Positions 24,100-61,251 of a stretch of DNA of 64,000 nt are shown here, piece by piece (the stretch's first letter is position 1; the number at the start of each line of letters is the position of its first letter). A program made the translations under genes and the position numbers. Where the stretch lies: contig JAGWKM010000001.1 of assembly GCA_028865305.1 (NCBI GenBank), forward strand, positions 58,762 to 122,761, in the 5' to 3' direction. The notes below the pieces were generated by a model. That model was not told where the DNA came from. It made no database searches and saw only the letters and a program-made list of their open reading frames with translations. Source of the DNA: Patescibacteria group bacterium (lineage in GTDB: Bacteria; Patescibacteriota; Minisyncoccia; UBA6257; 2-01-FULL-56-20).

Positions 24100-27000
24100 C
24101 TAAATTTTCCTTATCCCAACCCAAACAGGATCGTTTTCCAGCTTTGTTTCCTCCTCGGCGTCGAATTTTTCGGTACGCTTGTATTCAACGAGTCCTGCGC
24201 CGACATCGGATTTCAACGGCAGTTCGTTCTTTTGGACGGTAGCGCGGATCCCGGCTGGCAATTCGAGATAGAGCGCGATTTTGTCTTTCGGCTCGAGGCC
24301 GGCTTTCTGGCGCAACTCTTGGACCATGCGCGCGAGTTCGCGGAGCAATCCTTCTTCATGCAGCTCCGGTGTGATGGTTATATTCAACTTCGAATCGACT
24401 TCCAAAGTTTTATCAAAAGAAACTTTTTTGACATTGATCTCATCGCGGAGGATCACAAGAAATTCTTCCTTGCCTTCCAGCTCCATATTTTTCACCGTGA
24501 ACTCCGAAAGCGGTTGGCGGACCTTAATTTTTGCATCTGCACGCGCCGCCAATCCCAATGCCGCCAGATCTCGCGCTGTTTGCATGTTTTCAAGAATTTC
24601 ATTCCATGCTCCATGCTCCATGCTCCATTCTCCATTCGCAGGCCATTCCTCCAAATGCACCGATTCCTTTGGCCCGCCGAGCGCCGCGTACAATCCTTCT
24701 GCAAAAAACGGCGTGAACGGCGCAAGGAGTTTGGTCAATGAAAGCAAAACAAAATGGAGCGTCGCTGAAGCGTTTTCGTAATCCGTTCTCCGTTCTCCGT
24801 TCTCCATTCTCCATTCTTTTCCCTGCAGCCGTTTCCGCGAACGGCGGATGTACCAGCGGGATAAATCATCGACGAACGAATCGATTTCGATTGCCGCTTC
24901 GCGGATTTCATAGCGGTCCAATTTTTCGGTCATTGAAGCGGTCAATTCAGCCAATCGCGCGGCGATCCATCGGTCGAGGATATTACGAGAGGAGGATGGA
25001 TCGTGGAGGATGGAGGATGGGGCCGCGTAGGTTTTCCAAAAGACGAATGAATTGTAGATGATCAAATGCGTCCGCCGGAGCGCCTTCGCCACTTCCTGCT
25101 CGTCGAAATTTTTCGGTTCGCCGAACGGCGTGCCGGTGTAGAAATACCAGCGCACCGCGTCGGCGCCGAATTTGTCGATGACCGAAAACGGTTCGACGAT
25201 ATTGCCCTTCGATTTCGACATCTTCTGGCCGAACTTATCATTGATCAGGCCGAACGTGATGACGTTCTTATAGGGCGCTTCAAAACCGAGCGCGGTTGCG
25301 ATGGCAAGCAGGGTGTAAAACCAGCCGCGGGTCTGGTCCATTCCTTCGGCGATGTAGTCGGCGGGGTAAGCGTGCGGCGGTTTTGTTCCATCCCATTCTC
25401 TATTCTCCATTCTCCGTTCTCCGCTTCCTCCAAACGGCCAGTGCACTTCCGCAAACGGCATGGCGCCCGAATCATACCAGACATCCGCCACTTCTTTTAC
25501 GCGCCCCATCCGGTTTCCGCATCGCGGGCACGGAAGCGCGATTTCGTCCGCATAAGGCCGGTGCAGGTCCGCCGCTCCGGTTTCGTTCCGTGGGATGATT
25601 TTGAGCGGCAGTTCCCTGATTTCGGCAAAGCCGATGAATTCGCCCGGTTTCGCCCGTTTTTCATCGATGGCCCGTTTTTCACTCCATCCTTCGGCGACCT
25701 GGAAGAACATCCAGATCGGATACTCGTGCGAAACGATCAGAATATTCTTGCCTTCATATTTCGATTCGCAATCCCGGAGGAATTCCCAAATCCGCGACCT
25801 GAGGTCGCGCACCGACTCGCCGCCCTCGGGCCGCTTTTCAAACCGCGATTCGTAGGTCGGATAAAATTCGGCATATTTCTTGTCGGGCAGGCCGGTGAGC
25901 GTCGGGCCGAGATGGATTTCTTCGATGCGTTTGTCGAATGATACTTCCGGCTTGCCGAGCACGGCGTAGTCGATGGTCTCGGTTTCCTTGGTGCGCGTGA
26001 CGTCGGAGGAAATGATGATGTCGATTTTCTCCCCCTTTTTATCGAGTTGGCGCTTGAATTGGGTAATTGATTTCAAAACTTCTTCCTGGCCGCGCGGCGT
26101 GAGATGCAGGTATTTCCGCTGGCCGGAGTCGATGACGTTGAAGATGTTGCTTTCCGCTTCGCCGTGGCGCATGACCCAATAATGGTTTTTGGGCCCGCCG
26201 GCGAGTTCGTTCAATTCGTCCATGCTGCCGACGATCTCATGCCGGCCGCATTTGCCGCACTCCCAGATCGGCAGCGGCGCGCCCCAATACCGTTCGCGCG
26301 ACAGGTTCCAGTCCTTCACTTCGCGCAGCCATTCGCCGAAGCGGCCTTCTTTCACGTGCTGCGGCATCCAGTTGATCGTTTCATTGCGTTTCAATAATTC
26401 GTTCCGCAGCCTGCTCATCGCGATGAACCAGGATGTGCGGGCATAATAAAGGATGGGCGTGCCGCAGCGCCAGCAATACGGATATTCGTGCGCGTATGGT
26501 TCGATGCGGAGCAGGGCGCCGCGTTGCTTCAGGTGTTCGAAAATGCGTTCTTCGGTTTCTTTCGATTTTGCGTATTCGCCGGCGAGCGCCGGAACGTCTT
26601 TCGTGAACTTTCCTTCCTCATCCACGGTGTGGTGCTGCGGCAGGCCGATTTCCTGCCCGAGCCGGTAATCGTCTTCGCCGTACATCACGGCGGTGTGCAC
26701 GACGCCGGTGCCGTCGGTCGTCGTTACGAAATCCGCCGGATAGATTTTGTAAGAAACCGGCGATTTCAATTTTTCTACATCGAAGAGCGGTTCGTATTCG
26801 AGGCCGACCAAATCCGCGCCGGCGAGCTCGTGTGATTTTCCCGCGTTTTCCAGTCCGATGTCTTTCAATCGGCCTGCGGCAGCGATCACATATTCGCCAT
26901 CTTTTTCTATGGCGCGATATTTGACATTCGGGCCGACTGCGAGCGCCACATTGCCGGGTAAAGTCCATGGGGTCGTGGTCCAAGAAAGAATGTAGATGTG

Positions 27001-27711
27001 ATCTTCGGGTTTGATGAGCTGCGGGCCGATTTTTTGCCCCGGTTTCAATTTGAACTTCAGATAAACCGACTGGTCGGTCGCTTCCTTGTATCCTTGCGCC
27101 AGTTCATGCGACGAGAGCGCGGTGCCGCAGCGCGTACACCAAGGGACTACCTTGTGCCCCTTATAAAGGAGGCCGTTCTTGTGGATTTGCGCCAGGGTAA
27201 ACCAAACCGTTTCGACGTATTCCGGCGAGTAGGTGATGTACGCGTTTTTGAGATCGAGCCAGTAGCCGATCCGTTCCGTGAGCCGCTCCCATTCGTCTTT
27301 ATGGATCCAAACCTGCTCCTGTGCGGCCTTGTTGAATTTCTCGACGCCGAAGGCTTCGATTTCTTTTTTCGTTTTGAACCCGAGCGCTTTTTCGGCTGCC
27401 ATTTCGACCGGCAGCCCGTGCGTGTCCCAGCCGGCGCGCCGCGGCACGTAATAGCCGCGCATGGTCTTGTAGCGCAGCATGACGTCCTTTACGACGCGCG
27501 CGAGCACGTGGTGGATACCCGGCTTCCCGTTCGCGTACGGCGGCCCTTCGTAGAAAACGAATTCTTTTTTGTCCGCTTTTCGGTCTTCGTCTTCCCGTAA
27601 AGATTTCTCGAAAATTTTATTTGATCCCCAAAACGCCAGGACTTCTTCTTCAAGCTTCGGCAGGTTGAATTCACCTTTCAGAAAATCCGGTTTTTCGGAT
27701 GATTTTGGCAT
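24100..27711 (-). CDS. ileS: Isoleucyl-tRNA synthetase with an inserted histidine-phosphatase domain
   Basis: IleRS charges tRNA-Ile. The HIGH-type motif is ANGKPGIHHVLAR (archaeal/eukaryotic-like subtype), the editing domain contains TTTPWTLPGNVALAV, KMSKS is GQKMSKSKGN, and the anticodon domain follows. Between CGKCGRHEIVGSMDEL and PYADEIALPCPRCGNRM about 200 residues are inserted (about 505-702): VMRHGEAESN, SSDVTRTKETE, RIEEIHLGPTL, EGGESVRDLRSRI and NILIVSHEYP, a complete histidine phosphatase with both catalytic His, Arg and Glu. Several in-frame heptad-repeat insertions encode WRMENGE-like peptides in the C-terminal half. The length, 1203 aa, exceeds a typical type-2 enzyme by about the inserted domain. 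Confidence 0.93.
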   Translation of the reverse strand: MPKSSEKPDFLKGEFNLPKLEEEVLAFWGSNKIFEKSLREDEDRKADKKEFVFYEGPPYANGKPGIHHVLARVVKDVMLRYKTMRGYYVPRRAGWDTHGLPVEMAAEKALGFKTKKEIEAFGVEKFNKAAQEQVWIHKDEWERLTERIGYWLDLKNAYITYSPEYVETVWFTLAQIHKNGLLYKGHKVVPWCTRCGTALSSHELAQGYKEATDQSVYLKFKLKPGQKIGPQLIKPEDHIYILSWTTTPWTLPGNVALAVGPNVKYRAIEKDGEYVIAAAGRLKDIGLENAGKSHELAGADLVGLEYEPLFDVEKLKSPVSYKIYPADFVTTTDGTGVVHTAVMYGEDDYRLGQEIGLPQHHTVDEEGKFTKDVPALAGEYAKSKETEERIFEHLKQRGALLRIEPYAHEYPYCWRCGTPILYYARTSWFIAMSRLRNELLKRNETINWMPQHVKEGRFGEWLREVKDWNLSRERYWGAPLPIWECGKCGRHEIVGSMDELNELAGGPKNHYWVMRHGEAESNIFNVIDSGQRKYLHLTPRGQEEVLKSITQFKRQLDKKGEKIDIIISSDVTRTKETETIDYAVLGKPEVSFDKRIEEIHLGPTLTGLPDKKYAEFYPTYESRFEKRPEGGESVRDLRSRIWEFLRDCESKYEGKNILIVSHEYPIWMFFQVAEGWSEKRAIDEKRAKPGEFIGFAEIRELPLKIIPRNETGAADLHRPYADEIALPCPRCGNRMGRVKEVADVWYDSGAMPFAEVHWPFGGSGERRMENREWDGTKPPHAYPADYIAEGMDQTRGWFYTLLAIATALGFEAPYKNVITFGLINDKFGQKMSKSKGNIVEPFSVIDKFGADAVRWYFYTGTPFGEPKNFDEQEVAKALRRTHLIIYNSFVFWKTYAAPSSILHDPSSSRNILDRWIAARLAELTASMTEKLDRYEIREAAIEIDSFVDDLSRWYIRRSRKRLQGKEWRMENGERRTDYENASATLHFVLLSLTKLLAPFTPFFAEGLYAALGGPKESVHLEEWPANGEWSMEHGAWNEILENMQTARDLAALGLAARADAKIKVRQPLSEFTVKNMELEGKEEFLVILRDEINVKKVSFDKTLEVDSKLNITITPELHEEGLLRELARMVQELRQKAGLEPKDKIALYLELPAGIRATVQKNELPLKSDVGAGLVEYKRTEKFDAEEETKLENDPVWVGIRKI
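24601..24650 (-). repeat. In-frame heptad repeat in ileS (1)
   Basis: CCATGCT and CCATTCT units in tandem (on the plus strand) encode NGEWSMEHGAW in IleRS near the C-terminal domain. Confidence 0.75.
24783..24818 (-). repeat. In-frame heptad repeat in ileS (2)
   Basis: CCGTTCT/CCATTCT units encode KEWRMENGERRTD in the anticodon-binding domain. Confidence 0.75.
24989..25021 (-). repeat. In-frame heptad repeat in ileS (3)
   Basis: GGAGGAT-type units encode SSILHDPSSS after the catalytic domain. Confidence 0.6.
25391..25433 (-). repeat. In-frame heptad repeat in ileS (4)
   Basis: CCATTCT/CTATTCT units encode ERRMENREW within the catalytic core. Confidence 0.7.
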
Positions 27712-28070: not shown

Positions 28071-29870
28071 TCAGATCTTTTCCAGCGTTTTGATGCCGAG
28101 GAGGTGCAGGCCGGTTCGGATGGTTTGGGCAGCGGTTTCGGCAAGCTGGAGCCGCGCTGTCCTCCGTTCTCCATTCTCATCTTTTAAGATTGGCGTTGTT
28201 TCGTAGAATTTGTTTGCAATCGAAGCAAGTTTATGGAGGTAGGTCGCCAATGTGCTTGGCGTGAAATTGACGCCGGCGCGCTGGACAATATCCGGAAATT
28301 CCAAAATTTTCCGCATGAGCGAAAGCTCAAGCTGAGAAGTGAGAAATGAGAAGTGAGAAGTGGGAGATTTCCCATTTCCCACCTCCCATTTCCCACCTCC
28401 CATTTCCCACTTTCGCAAAATACTGCGCAATCTTGCGAAAGCGTACTGCAGATACGGGCCGGAATCGCCTTCGAATGAAAGTGATTTTTCGAAATCAAAG
28501 ACGATGTCTTGGCCGGGATTTTGCCGCAGGATGGAATATTTGATGGCACCGATCGCGATGGCCTCGGTTGCCGCCGCGCGCTCTGCCGCATCCAGTTCGC
28601 TTCGTTCGCTTACGAACGCCTGCAATTTTTCTTTTGCCTGTCCGATGAGCGCTTCCGCCGCGATTATGTTTCCTTTGCGCGAAGACATTTTGCCGGATTC
28701 GAACCGCAGCATACCGTGGCCGATGTGCTTGGTCTTGCCGGCGGCTTCGGGCATCAGGAGATCCATCGCCTTCAAAAGCACGCGGAAATAGTCGTTCTGT
28801 TCGTTGCCGGTGATCACGATCGACTGGTCGAAATGGAAATCCTGATATTTTCGGGCAGTGAGGCCGAGCTCTTTCGCCTCATAGGTCGGCACGCCTTTCG
28901 AGTTTACGAATACGCGCGTGTGCAGGCCGTGCGCTTCACCCTTGAAGACGACCGCCCCGTCGCTTTTTTCAAGGATGTTTTCCTTCAGTCCCTTTTCGAC
29001 CGCTTTTAGCCCTTCTTCCGCCACCTCGCTTTCCCAATAGTTCCGGACGAATTTCGTATCGAGCCGCGCAAAAATTTCCTGGAAATGCCTGATGCTGATT
29101 TCGCGGCCCCAGGCATAGAGTTCATTGACTGCCGGGTCGGATTTTTCAAAAACCGTTTTGTTCAGCCCGTCGATTTCCTTTTTTGCTGATTCGTCTTCTT
29201 CATATTTCGTTGAGCCGAAAACGTAAGCATCCGCCCAAAATGCCAATTGCGTCTTAGCATCGGATGTCCGGAGGGCATCTGCCGTCAAGCCCTCCTGCCG
29301 CATTCGTTCGCGCACGCCGAAGATCGCTTTTGCCACATGCAGGCCGACATCGCCGCCGTAGGAAAGCCGCTTTACGTCCGCGCCCTGGGCCTCGATGAGC
29401 CGTGCGATTGATTCGCCGATGGCGTTCGACATCAGATGCCCGATGTGGAACAGCTTGAACGGGTTCGGGTCGGTGAATTCGATGATGACTTTTGAGTCGG
29501 AGAATGGAGAATGGAGATTGGAGAATGAAATTGATTCGGCCATCGGCCATCGGCCATCGGCCATTTTCCAAAATTCCTCGGAAATGGTTTCCTTTCCCAG
29601 CCAAAAGTTAATGAACCCCGGACCGACTGCTTCCACTTTTTCAAAAAATCCAACGGGTGCCGCCTTGGCGATTTCTTCCGCCAGTTTTTTAGCGCGTTCA
29701 ATTGTTTTTTCATTCCATTCTCCATTCTCCATTCTCCATTCTCCTTCTTTCATCCGCATCGCCACATTTGTCGAATAGTGCCCAAAAGTGCTTTCTTCGG
29801 GAACAAAAAGCTCGATGGCGGCATCTGCGCCCAAAACCTTTTTTATGATTTCCAGTATTTTTTCTTTCAT
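28071..29870 (-). CDS. argS: Arginyl-tRNA synthetase
   Basis: ArgRS charges tRNA-Arg. The N-terminal tRNA-binding domain, the HIGH motif (PNPFKLFHIGHLMSN), the KMSKS counterpart GKMSSRKGN and the C-terminal DALR domain (FARLRSILRKW..., LPDIVQRA-like) are all present. The Met at 29870 (MKEKILEIIKKVLG) was chosen over a 33-codon extension. Four in-frame repeat insertions are visible: GEWRMENGEWNE, ADGRWPMAESISFSNLHSPFS, KWEMGGGKWEVGNGKSPTS and KDENGERRTAR. All fall in linkers or insert points, leaving the catalytic motifs intact. Confidence 0.92.
   Translation of the reverse strand: MKEKILEIIKKVLGADAAIELFVPEESTFGHYSTNVAMRMKEGEWRMENGEWNEKTIERAKKLAEEIAKAAPVGFFEKVEAVGPGFINFWLGKETISEEFWKMADGRWPMAESISFSNLHSPFSDSKVIIEFTDPNPFKLFHIGHLMSNAIGESIARLIEAQGADVKRLSYGGDVGLHVAKAIFGVRERMRQEGLTADALRTSDAKTQLAFWADAYVFGSTKYEEDESAKKEIDGLNKTVFEKSDPAVNELYAWGREISIRHFQEIFARLDTKFVRNYWESEVAEEGLKAVEKGLKENILEKSDGAVVFKGEAHGLHTRVFVNSKGVPTYEAKELGLTARKYQDFHFDQSIVITGNEQNDYFRVLLKAMDLLMPEAAGKTKHIGHGMLRFESGKMSSRKGNIIAAEALIGQAKEKLQAFVSERSELDAAERAAATEAIAIGAIKYSILRQNPGQDIVFDFEKSLSFEGDSGPYLQYAFARLRSILRKWEMGGGKWEVGNGKSPTSHFSFLTSQLELSLMRKILEFPDIVQRAGVNFTPSTLATYLHKLASIANKFYETTPILKDENGERRTARLQLAETAAQTIRTGLHLLGIKTLEKI
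28333..28411. repeat. Palindromic heptad repeat inside argS (1)
   Basis: GAGAAGTGAGAAATGAGAAG on the left and CCCATTTCCCACCTCCCATT on the right: purine-rich units followed by pyrimidine-rich units, read in frame. Confidence 0.75.
29500..29568. repeat. Palindromic heptad repeat inside argS (2)
   Basis: GGAGAATGGAGAATGGAGAT on the left, then three copies of CGGCCAT on the right. Confidence 0.75.
29711..29748 (-). repeat. In-frame heptad repeat inside argS (3)
   Basis: Five near-perfect CCATTCT units; three units give the 7-residue peptide EWRMENG. Confidence 0.8.
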
Positions 29871-30044
29871 TTTGACAAGTCCAGCAGTTCGGACTAACTT
29901 TATAACAGGTGCGATTGAGGCATGCTGCTGGCTGATAATCCGCCGGATGATTCGAAGGCGCTCGCACAATCCTCAGGGCCTAACTTGCCCCGTCGCACCG
30001 TTCCTGCTCTTTATATATATATCGTATTTTTCTTCATTCTTGAA

Positions 30045-53102: not shown

Positions 53103-53282
53103 ATGGCTAAAGTAAAACGTTCCGATAATTTGATCACCCTTCGCTGCTCCGTTTGCAAGCGGCGGAATTATTATGTCCACAAGAACAAGAAATCCGTCGA
53201 GCGGAAAGTTGAATTGAAAAAATTCTGTCCGTGGTGCCGCAAACAGACCGTGCATAAGGAAGGAAGATTGACGGGGAAGTAG
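53103..53282 (+). CDS. rpmG: 50S ribosomal protein L33
   Basis: A 59-aa zinc-ribbon form: CSVCKRRNYYVHKNKK and FCPWCRKQTVHKEGR carry two CxxC pairs (zinc-binding, C+ type). TATCAT at 53090-53095 lies 7 nt before the ATG, giving a leaderless mRNA. It is followed by tRNA-Trp, a pairing often seen before secE/nusG, but those genes do not follow here. Confidence 0.93.
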   Translation: MAKVKRSDNLITLRCSVCKRRNYYVHKNKKSVERKVELKKFCPWCRKQTVHKEGRLTGK

Positions 53283-53283
53283 A

Positions 53284-53340
53284 ATGGAGAATGGAGAATG
53301 GGTTCACCCTTCCTGCTTTCTACGTTATACTTTCTACTGT
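53284..53340. repeat. Heptad-repeat tract containing the tRNA-Trp promoter
   Basis: GAATGGAGA units on the left, CTTTCTACGTTATACTTTCTAC on the right; the TATACT inside the right arm is a plausible -10 for tRNA-Trp. Confidence 0.6.
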
Positions 53341-59049: not shown

Positions 59050-61251
59050 CTACCACTTCTCTACCATCAACATCTTGCTGGGCTTGAAGATGCCGTAAAT
59101 TTCCTCGGTCACGAATGGCATGAACGGATGGAGCATCTTCAGGGATTCGAGCAGAAGGTGTTCCAAAATCGCAAAGCTCGCTTGTTTTTCTTCCTCGGTG
59201 CCGTTGCGGAGCTTCTCTTTTTCCGCTTCGATGATTTTGTCCGCCAGCGTGTGCCAGATATAGTGATATAGTTTTTCCGCTGCGAGGTGGAATTCGAAAT
59301 TTTCGATATGTTCCGTAATTTTGGTTTTCAAACTATTCAGTTCGTCCAGGTAGGTTTGGAAGTCAGAAGTTGGAAGTTGGAAGTTGGGATTATTCCATTC
59401 TCCATTCTCCATTCTCCATTCTCCTTTGTTCATTTCGATAAACCTTGCGATATTCCAAATCTTCGTCGAAAAATTCCGGTAGCCGCGGATGCGGTCTTCG
59501 GATAATTTGATGTCGTTTCCCGCCGAAGCGCCGATCACGAGCGACAGCCGTGTCGCGTCTGCGCCGTATTTGTCGGCCATTTCAAGCGGGTCGATGCCGT
59601 TGCCGAGCGATTTCGACATTTTGCGCCCTATTTCATCGCGCACGAGACCGTGGAGATATACTTTGCGAAAGGGGACTTCGTCCATTAAAACCGCGGACAT
59701 CAGGATCATCCGCGCGACCCAGAAGAACAGGATGTCGTAGCCGGTTTCGAGCACCGAGTTCGGGAAATACGTTTTTAAGTCGGGCGTTTCATCGGGCCAG
59801 CCGAGCGTCGAAAACGGCCACAGCCCCGAAGAGAACCAGGTATCGAGCGTGTCCGGATCCTGCTCCCATCCGTCTCCTTCCGGCGGTTCAATGCCAACGT
59901 AAAGTTCTTCTCCATTCTCCATTCTCCCTTCTCCGTCCTTCTTTTTCTTATACCAGACGGGAATCCGGTGTCCGAACCAGATCTGCCGCGAGATGCACCA
60001 GTCGCGGAGGTTGTCGATCCAATGGAAATAAATTTTTTCGAACCGCTCCGGAAGGATTTTGATCCGGCCGCTTTCGACCGCCTCGCGCATCAATTCTTTG
60101 AGCGTCCTTGCCTCTTGTCCCTTGCCCCATGTTCCATTAAATTTCTTCTCCACCGCCACGAACCATTGCTTCAAAATCTGCGGTTCGATAACGCCTCCGC
60201 CGCGGCTGTCGGTCGCGATGCGGTGCGTATATTTTTCATCAATTTTTTCAATCAGGCCTTTTGATTGTAGTTTTTCTACGATGAGCGGCCGCGCTTTTTT
60301 GATGTGCTGTCCGGCAAATTCGCCGGCGATTGGCAGCAGCTTGCCTTGCAGATCGATGACCTGTTCCATGTCGAGTTTGTGCCGCAGGGCGATATCGAAG
60401 TCAACCATGTCGTGCCAGGGCGTTATTGTCATCACGCCGGTGCCGAAGGCCATGTCGATGGCCGAATCTTTCAAGATCGTCGCCGTGACCGGGCCGTTGA
60501 TCCATTCGAGTTCTATTTTTTCGCCGTGTTTATATTTTCCATACCGCTTGTCGTCCGGATGCATCACGACGTATTTGTCGCCGAATTTCGTTTCCGGGCG
60601 TGCGGTCGCGATCACGAAGGGGCCGTATTTCAGGTAATAGAGCGGCACGGTTTCTTCGATCCATTCGATTTCGTCGTCCGAAACCGTGGTGCCGAGTTCA
60701 GGATCCCAGTTTACGATGCGGTTGCCGCGGTAGATCAGGCCGCGATCGTACATTTTTTTGAACGCGGTGCGGACGGCGACTTCGCGCGCGGCGTCCAGCG
60801 TGTAGGTCTCGCGGCTCCAGTCGAGCGAAGAGCCCATCCGCTTCACCTGTTTCACGATGGTGTCATGGCTCTTTGCGGCGAATTCATTCACGCGGCGCAA
60901 AAATTCCTCGCGGCCGAGGTCGTGGCGGCGTTTTTTCTCCTCTTTGTAAATCAGTTTTTCCACTTTTGACTGCGTTGCGATCGCGGCGTGGTCCGTGCCG
61001 GGTATCCACAGGGTTTTTTTGCCACGCATCCGTTCGTAGCGCACCATAATGTCTTCAATGACGAGCATCGCCGCGTGGCCCATGTGCAGTTCGCCCGTCA
61101 CGTTCGGCGGGGGAAGCACGATTGAAAACGGTTCCGCATCTTTCGCCGTCACACCTTTTTCGACGCAAACATCAGGGTTGAAAAATCCCGAATCTTCCCA
61201 CTTCTTATAAATCCGCGCCTCAACCTCTTTAATATCATATCTCGGTTCCAT
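59050..61251 (-). CDS. valS: Valyl-tRNA synthetase (short form)
   Basis: ValRS charges tRNA-Val. The HIGH motif is PNVTGELHMGHAAM, the editing domain has TARPETKFGDKYVV, KMSKS is GRKMSKSLGNG, and the anticodon domain ends PFVTEEIYGIF. The C-terminal coiled coil of long ValRS forms is absent; the total is 733 aa. Three in-frame repeat insertions encode GEGRMENGEEL, GEWRMENGEWNNPNFQLPTS and WGKGQEARTL. On the minus strand TATAAT lies 7 nt before the ATG at 61251, so the start is leaderless. It is divergent from the DGR target gene. Confidence 0.95.
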   Translation of the reverse strand: MEPRYDIKEVEARIYKKWEDSGFFNPDVCVEKGVTAKDAEPFSIVLPPPNVTGELHMGHAAMLVIEDIMVRYERMRGKKTLWIPGTDHAAIATQSKVEKLIYKEEKKRRHDLGREEFLRRVNEFAAKSHDTIVKQVKRMGSSLDWSRETYTLDAAREVAVRTAFKKMYDRGLIYRGNRIVNWDPELGTTVSDDEIEWIEETVPLYYLKYGPFVIATARPETKFGDKYVVMHPDDKRYGKYKHGEKIELEWINGPVTATILKDSAIDMAFGTGVMTITPWHDMVDFDIALRHKLDMEQVIDLQGKLLPIAGEFAGQHIKKARPLIVEKLQSKGLIEKIDEKYTHRIATDSRGGGVIEPQILKQWFVAVEKKFNGTWGKGQEARTLKELMREAVESGRIKILPERFEKIYFHWIDNLRDWCISRQIWFGHRIPVWYKKKKDGEGRMENGEELYVGIEPPEGDGWEQDPDTLDTWFSSGLWPFSTLGWPDETPDLKTYFPNSVLETGYDILFFWVARMILMSAVLMDEVPFRKVYLHGLVRDEIGRKMSKSLGNGIDPLEMADKYGADATRLSLVIGASAGNDIKLSEDRIRGYRNFSTKIWNIARFIEMNKGEWRMENGEWNNPNFQLPTSDFQTYLDELNSLKTKITEHIENFEFHLAAEKLYHYIWHTLADKIIEAEKEKLRNGTEEEKQASFAILEHLLLESLKMLHPFMPFVTEEIYGIFKPSKMLMVEKW
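59356..59426. repeat. Palindromic heptad repeat inside valS (1)
   Basis: GGAAGTTGGAAGTTGG on the left, then CCATTCT units on the right, in frame. Confidence 0.75.
59909..59938 (-). repeat. In-frame heptad repeat inside valS (2)
   Basis: CCATTCTCCATTCTCC units encode GRMENGEE near the catalytic core. Confidence 0.7.
60106..60128 (-). repeat. In-frame heptad-like repeat inside valS (3)
   Basis: CCTTGCCTCTTGTCCCTTGC encodes GKGQEAR in frame. Confidence 0.5.

What the first reader, a model, noticed from the sequence alone, without database searches (positions are those of the whole stretch)
25605..26211. Histidine phosphatase domain inside isoleucyl-tRNA synthetase
About 200 residues inserted between the synthetase core and its late zinc-binding segment contain RHGEAE, the second-site Arg and Glu, and SHEYP, the full catalytic set of the phosphoglycerate-mutase-like phosphatases. 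The surrounding IleRS motifs are intact. A phosphatase in cis could hydrolyse aminoacyl-adenylate by-products, dinucleoside polyphosphates or a regulatory nucleotide.
Basis: partly seen in the sequence, partly recalled or inferred. Interest (0 to 1): 0.8.

Follow-up and report, generated by a model that had tools for sequence, protein, structure and literature searches.

The report
Phosphatase domain inside isoleucyl-tRNA synthetase
In a large group of tiny, mostly uncultured bacteria, the enzyme that loads isoleucine onto its tRNA carries a complete, apparently active phosphatase inside it, and where it does not, the same phosphatase is often the gene immediately before it, so a phosphate-removing step seems tied to isoleucine loading there for a reason nobody has described.

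Summary
Window 24100-27711 (-) encodes one 1203-aa type-2 isoleucyl-tRNA synthetase (IleRS) with a branch-1 histidine phosphatase (HP, Pfam His_Phos_1, E 2e-22) inserted at residues ~501-714, between the two CxxC halves of the zinc ribbon. It is not a misassembly or relic: in 125 IleRS-borne HP domains, Arg, His, second Arg, Glu and second His are invariant (one masked residue aside). In 133 sampled genomes of the class I count 89 with fused HP and 13 with a stand-alone copy. In six of those the stand-alone gene directly precedes an insert-less ileS, three with 4-nt stop/start overlaps. Elsewhere in the phylum, HP domains occur in tandem in IleRS, at another IleRS site, and in ValRS between the same CxxC pairs. 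No paper found describes this. The repeated pairing implies a phosphatase functionally coupled to Ile (and sometimes Val) charging. Its substrate is unproven; my best guess is a small nucleotide-like monophosphate formed or bound at the synthetase. (p)ppGpp and phosphoglycerate mutase are unlikely as the shared role, because HP-bearing genomes exist without RelA/SpoT and without enolase. Both families are known; the architecture and pairing are new to me.

The parts
24100..27711 (-). ileS, type-2 isoleucyl-tRNA synthetase with inserted phosphatase, 1203 aa
   Evidence: single ORF; TIGR00392 833.9 bits vs cut-off 621.4; AlphaFold2 pLDDT 90.5, pTM 0.85, best PDB matches are IleRS2 structures
25570..26211 (-). 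whole insertion relative to insert-less IleRSs, residues ~501-714
   Evidence: alignment with L115, L116, L117, L120, which pass from GS..EL directly to DLHRP
25672..26178 (-). His_Phos_1 domain, residues 512-680
   Evidence: Pfam PF00300 E 2.2e-22; insert-only model pLDDT 96.4 with HP-fold matches in PDB
26164..26169 (-). R515-H516, RHG motif (phospho-acceptor His)
   Evidence: invariant in the alignment
25993..25995 (-). R573, second phosphate-binding Arg
   Evidence: invariant
25918..25920 (-). E598, likely proton donor (Glu, Asp in a few)
   Evidence: 120 Glu and 4 Asp of 125 IleRS-borne domains
25816..25818 (-). E632 of the GES motif
   Evidence: invariant
25726..25728 (-). H662 of SHEYP, second catalytic His
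   Evidence: invariant; codon read directly
26248..26259 (-). first zinc knuckle C485-x-x-C488, upstream of the insert
   Evidence: sequence
25519..25530 (-). second zinc knuckle C728-x-x-C731, downstream of the insert
   Evidence: sequence; nearly invariant in A2
27508..27519 (-). class I signature motif in the swapped form GIHH, residues 65-68
   Evidence: sequence; GIHH in 77 of 150 aligned IleRSs; GXHH described in PMC10485003
25210..25224 (-). KMSKS motif, residues 830-834
   Evidence: sequence
28071..29969 (-). argS, upstream on the same strand; in relatives the stand-alone HP gene lies between argS and ileS
   Evidence: ORF; gene order in L171-L174, L181, L182

Best explanation
The window encodes a type-2 IleRS carrying a complete, catalytically competent branch-1 histidine phosphatase inserted between the two CxxC halves of its zinc ribbon. 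Shown by sequence: identity, position, intact catalytic set, conservation, and the habit of this phosphatase of being either inside IleRS or the gene translated immediately before it. Inferred: it is a working phosphomonoesterase held at 1:1 ratio with, and probably docked on, the synthetase, forming a phosphohistidine on H516 and releasing phosphate with help of E598 and H662. The substrate is unproven. My best guess is a small nucleotide-like monophosphate made, misbound or accumulating at the synthetase (AMP-type product or a phosphorylated dead-end ligand), so that the domain clears an inhibitor or pulls the reaction forward. It is dispensable for aminoacylation itself, since some relatives have no copy.
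For: Pfam, NCBIfam and structure place both parts. R-H, R, E, H are invariant in 125 IleRS-borne domains, apart from one masked residue. 89 of 133 class genomes are fused and 13 have a stand-alone copy (my count). Stand-alone copies sit directly before insert-less ileS in six genomes (G310, G216, G271, G281, G238, G319), with 4-nt ATGA overlaps in three and a 7-nt overlap in a fourth. HP also recurs as tandem IleRS inserts (L135, L136), at another IleRS site (L138), and in ValRS between the same two CxxC pairs (L205; also ValRS L137, L145, L146). One HP-less IleRS instead carries a NUDIX domain (L203), and one genome has a NUDIX gene directly after ileS (L184), which hints at nucleotide housekeeping. 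Nearest characterised HPs include PhoE, phosphoserine phosphatase 1, CobC and a riboflavin-pathway phosphatase, several acting on nucleotide-like or amino-acid phosphomonoesters (substrates from names and own knowledge).
Against: No activity data. HP subfamily resemblance does not fix a substrate. No model coordinates were available, so the distance from the HP pocket to the synthetic, editing or tRNA sites was not measured. About 31 of 133 genomes lack the HP, so it is not essential. The NUDIX hint rests on two genomes; only 1 of 32 HP-less genomes has a NUDIX-fused IleRS. The HP could act on something unrelated to tRNA charging.
Confidence: 0.42

Rival explanations
1. The HP acts on tRNA(Ile) or on charged-tRNA metabolism: it removes a phosphate from damaged or immature tRNA ends (3' or 5' phosphate) near the acceptor site.
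For: The insertion is in the CP2/zinc-ribbon segment that precedes the second half of the catalytic core; it recurs at the same ribbon in ValRS; when separate it is often paired with synthetase genes.
Against: I know of no branch-1 HP with RNA-end phosphatase as its main activity; position relative to tRNA was not measured.
Confidence: 0.13
2. The HP hydrolyses dinucleoside polyphosphates (Ap4A type) that synthetases make as side products.
For: NUDIX domain in an HP-less IleRS (L203) and a NUDIX gene next to an HP-less ileS (L184); NUDIX enzymes are frequent Ap4A hydrolases (own knowledge).
Against: Branch-1 HPs act mainly on phosphomonoesters; HIT proteins, another Ap4A/adenylate hydrolase family, are in 132 of 133 genomes whatever the HP state, so there is no sign of complementation.
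Confidence: 0.12
3. No functional coupling: the zinc-ribbon loop tolerates foreign domains and a neighbouring general phosphatase was captured; it does an unrelated housekeeping job.
For: IleRS of this phylum hosts other domains too (GNAT plus HP in L138; NUDIX in L203); the HP can also be elsewhere in the genome (L175, L176) or absent.
Against: Several separate associations with IleRS/ValRS, same-site insertion in two different synthetases, and translational coupling to ileS when separate. Other HP fusions met (pyruvate kinase, dehydrogenases, phage portal) lie outside the IleRS-type group of the tree.
Confidence: 0.18
4. The HP is a protein phosphatase (phosphohistidine or phosphoserine/threonine) regulating IleRS or another protein.
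For: Some HPs (SixA type) are phosphohistidine phosphatases (own knowledge); fusion would give local regulation.
Against: The best sequence and fold matches are to small-molecule phosphatases and mutases; no partner kinase was found or sought.
Confidence: 0.1
5. The HP removes (p)ppGpp-type regulatory nucleotides.
Against: At least 13 HP-bearing genomes, sampled at 85% completeness or more, show no RelA_SpoT domain (G206, G133, G216, G218, G119, G231, G238, G244, G252, G254, G262, G271, G281).
Confidence: 0.04
6. The HP is a moonlighting glycolytic phosphoglycerate mutase.
For: Archaeal short dPGM is among the nearer NCBIfam models; some genomes have only this HP.
Against: Enolase is found in only 47 of 133 genomes, and several HP-fused genomes (for example G048, G133, G206, G207) lack it; iPGM is present in 102 of 133, including the window's genome, which also has a separate dPGM-like gene next to enolase.
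Confidence: 0.03

Closest known systems
Type-2 isoleucyl-tRNA synthetase (IleRS2; Priestia megaterium 8c8v, Thermus thermophilus 1ile)
   Same: Same domain order, C-terminal DUF5915 region, best structural matches, swapped GXHH-type signature known in some IleRS2 (PMC10485003)
   Different: About 214 extra residues forming a histidine phosphatase inside the zinc ribbon; the best-matching PDB IleRS chains are 821-1061 residues, against 1203 here
Branch-1 histidine phosphatases (PhoE 1h2e, phosphoserine phosphatase 1 4ij5, CobC 6nru)
   Same: Fold and full catalytic set
   Different: Normally free-standing metabolic enzymes; this group carries SHGDP/SHEYP around the second His and is embedded in or coupled to a tRNA synthetase
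NCBIfam NF040702, IleRS with N-acetyltransferase domain
   Same: An IleRS carrying an extra enzyme domain
   Different: Different enzyme; the window protein scores 309 against a cut-off of 1999. A relative (L138) has both GNAT and HP
Bifunctional RNase H/acid phosphatase (PRK07238)
   Same: A CobC-like HP fused to a nucleic-acid enzyme (family name as given in NCBIfam)
   Different: End-to-end fusion to RNase H; the window protein scores 49 against a cut-off of 326

Membership tests
Histidine phosphatase superfamily, branch 1 (PF00300) | Profile match over most of the domain | tested here: met
   E 2.2e-22, 80.1 bits vs 21.7; 79 of 79 relatives match
Histidine phosphatase superfamily, branch 1 (PF00300) | Catalytic R-H-G, second Arg, second His, acidic donor | tested here: met
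   R515 H516 G517, R573, H662, E598; invariance
Histidine phosphatase superfamily, branch 1 (PF00300) | HP fold | tested here: met
   Insert-only model pLDDT 96.4; Foldseek best E 6e-13, TM about 0.7 to HP structures
Histidine phosphatase superfamily, branch 1 (PF00300) | Phosphatase activity through a phosphohistidine | not testable with these tools
   Needs purified protein
Isoleucyl-tRNA synthetase (TIGR00392) | Equivalog score above cut-off | tested here: met
   833.9 vs 621.4 bits
Isoleucyl-tRNA synthetase (TIGR00392) | Class I signature motifs HXGH (or GXHH) and KMSKS | tested here: met
   GIHH at 65-68 and KMSKS at 830-834
Type-2 IleRS (IleRS2) | Groups with IleRS2 rather than IleRS1 | tested here: met
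   By structure: IleRS2 and eukaryotic-type structures precede the IleRS1 entries; no IleRS1/IleRS2 tree was built
Mupirocin-resistant MupA/MupB (NF000257/NF000258) | Score above the exception cut-off of 1900 | tested here: not met
   724 and 745 bits
IleRS with GNAT domain (NF040702) | Score above the cut-off and a GNAT domain | tested here: not met
   309 vs 1999 bits; no GNAT match in the window protein
dPGM, CobC and phosphoserine phosphatase equivalogs | Score above their cut-offs | tested here: not met
   dPGM_arch 45.6 vs 225, CobC 37.6 vs 162.9, PspA 33.5 vs 350

The most novel reading that the evidence does not exclude
A conserved aminoacylation-coupled phosphatase: a new, repeatedly evolved enzymatic activity (in cis or as a translationally coupled partner) that clears a phosphorylated ligand or repairs tRNA at IleRS and ValRS throughout a major part of Patescibacteria, i.e. 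a quality-control or metabolic step attached to tRNA charging that is not described for any other synthetase.
Probability: 0.35. Interest if true: 0.85.

Novelty: new variant of a known kind. Interest (0 to 1): 0.66.

Why it matters
IleRS is essential and its domain plan is usually strictly conserved. A fully catalytic phosphatase kept inside it across a class of bacteria, kept in several lineages as the adjacent coupled gene when not inside, and acquired again by ValRS, points to a chemical need linked to Ile/Val charging that standard models lack. It gives a directly testable enzyme pair from organisms that can hardly be cultured, and a clear marker for annotating these synthetases.

Tried and rejected
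Misassembly or separate gene: rejected, the same continuous ORF occurs in over 100 independent assemblies. Decayed relic: rejected by invariant catalysis. (p)ppGpp as common substrate: disfavoured. Phosphoglycerate mutase: disfavoured. Complementarity with HIT proteins: uninformative, HIT is nearly universal. NUDIX as a regular replacement: only one fused case among 32 HP-less genomes. Single origin with simple descent: not supported; HP presence changes at least 12 times on the IleRS body tree and separate HP domains joined IleRS/ValRS more than once. Literature: no paper found on IleRS or tRNA synthetases with histidine phosphatase (open-access library only).

Full report
Observation. The minus-strand ORF 24100-27711 encodes 1203 aa without a stop. 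Pfam finds class I synthetase domains, His_Phos_1 at 512-680 (E 2.2e-22), Anticodon_1 and DUF5915. TIGR00392 ileS scores 833.9 against a cut-off of 621.4. The insert, by comparison with insert-less IleRSs, is about residues 501-714. It lies between C485xxC488 and C728xxC731, so it splits the zinc ribbon rather than preceding it.

Is it real and functional? The same insert at the same place occurs in over 100 relatives fetched from independent assemblies. Among 106 distinct inserts R515, H516, S569, R573, E632 and H662 are 100% conserved and E598 96%. Over 125 IleRS-borne HP domains, including tandem copies, the only gap in the R-H-R-E-H set is one masked residue. The domain evolves faster than the synthetase body (mean majority-residue frequency 0.51 vs 0.66) while its catalytic set does not change. 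That is the pattern of an active enzyme, not a spacer or relic.

Structure. AlphaFold2 on 60 relatives gives pLDDT 90.5 and pTM 0.85 for residues 8-1203, with IleRS2 and eukaryotic IleRS as best PDB matches. The insert alone gives pLDDT 96.4 and matches phosphoserine phosphatase, PhoE, glucosyl-3-phosphoglycerate phosphatase and others at TM about 0.7. Profile search gives PhoE first.

Distribution. Across the phylum (145 genomes) fused forms outside the class are a minority, about 13 of 136.

The key new evidence is gene order. In G310, G216, G271, G281, G238 and G319 the insert-less ileS is directly preceded by the stand-alone HP, and an argS-like gene lies upstream (L171-L174, L181, L182; in some of these argS was recognised by its protein start rather than by BLAST). 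The ileS start overlaps the HP stop by 4 nt in three of them and by 7 nt in a fourth; gaps are about 5 and 15 nt in the others. In the window argS also lies just upstream of the fused ileS, and argS is within 1.5 kb upstream in at least 45 of 111 loci, a count that mixes fused, operon and insert-less loci and is a lower limit. So in these lineages the phosphatase is either in IleRS or translated with it. G047 and G321 have it elsewhere (L175, L176).

Repeated recruitment. Two IleRSs of one family carry two HP domains in tandem (L135, L136), the second falling elsewhere in the HP tree. G105 has an IleRS with a GNAT domain and an HP placed between the catalytic core and the anticodon domain (L138), and a ValRS with two HPs (L137). 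L145, L146 and L205 are ValRSs with one HP (L205 identified by its sequence, not by a family search). In L205 the HP again sits between CxxC and CPRC of the ribbon. One catalytic His reads Ser in the alignment of one ValRS domain (L145). The HP tree is weakly resolved: IleRS inserts, operon copies and most class stand-alone copies lie together, apart from the dPGM-like group that includes the fusions to pyruvate kinase and dehydrogenases. On the IleRS body tree HP presence needs at least 12 changes, so the domain has come and gone, by excision, re-insertion or transfer of whole ileS genes; the trees do not say which.

Mechanism. Shown: identity, site, conservation, coupling by fusion or adjacency. 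Inferred: phosphohistidine chemistry at H516 and 1:1 action with the synthetase. Substrate: not shown. Tests made here disfavour (p)ppGpp (13 HP-bearing genomes with no RelA/SpoT match) and phosphoglycerate mutase (enolase missing in many HP-bearing genomes; iPGM common). HIT proteins do not complement it. A NUDIX domain inside an HP-less IleRS (L203) and a NUDIX gene after an HP-less ileS (L184) hint at nucleotide housekeeping, but are two cases. I therefore commit, at about 0.4, to a phosphomonoesterase acting on a small nucleotide-like ligand at the synthetase, with tRNA ends, dinucleoside polyphosphates, protein phosphatase and unrelated capture as rivals.

Known or new. Both families are known. 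No open-access paper found describes the combination. NCBIfam has IleRS-GNAT but the search showed no model for IleRS-HP. I rate it a new variant of a known kind.

Limits. Counts come from sampled draft genomes and from my reading of tables. The window's genome is a bin of 1.99 Mb with 8% contamination, but this contig's IleRS is 69% identical to one from the same family. Phyla outside Patescibacteria were not surveyed.

Noticed in passing
window 27508-27519 (-): The IleRS class I signature is the swapped GIHH form (G/AXHH), which PMC10485003 links to mupirocin hyper-resistance in IleRS2; GXHH-type motifs are the majority among the relatives, HYGH the commonest alternative.
   Followed up: yes
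window near 24637, 24816, 29498-29501, 29727-29744, 53281-53285, 59407-59424, and other G000 contigs: Heptamer arrays (GGAGAAT)n lie inside genes such as argS, ileS and eno and are translated as GEWRMEN; 130 matches genome-wide against 0 for the reversed control. Resembles the short heptamer repeats known from cyanobacteria (own knowledge).
   Followed up: partly
L003 1-2217 (G000 contig C340): Lambda-type phage portal protein (PF05136) with a C-terminal His_Phos_1 domain in one frame.
   Followed up: partly
L203 2393-5980 (G221): IleRS without HP but with a NUDIX domain inserted at residues 225-343.
   Followed up: partly
L138 2138-6490 (G105): IleRS with a GNAT domain and an HP between catalytic core and anticodon domain.
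   Followed up: partly
L152, L153, L154: HP fused to 2-hydroxyacid dehydrogenase (two genomes) and to pyruvate kinase (one); these HPs group with the dPGM-like gene that follows enolase in the window's genome.
   Followed up: no
class survey, 133 genomes: Enolase_C was found in only 47 of 133 genomes but iPGM_N in 102, an odd mismatch for neighbouring glycolytic steps.
   Followed up: no
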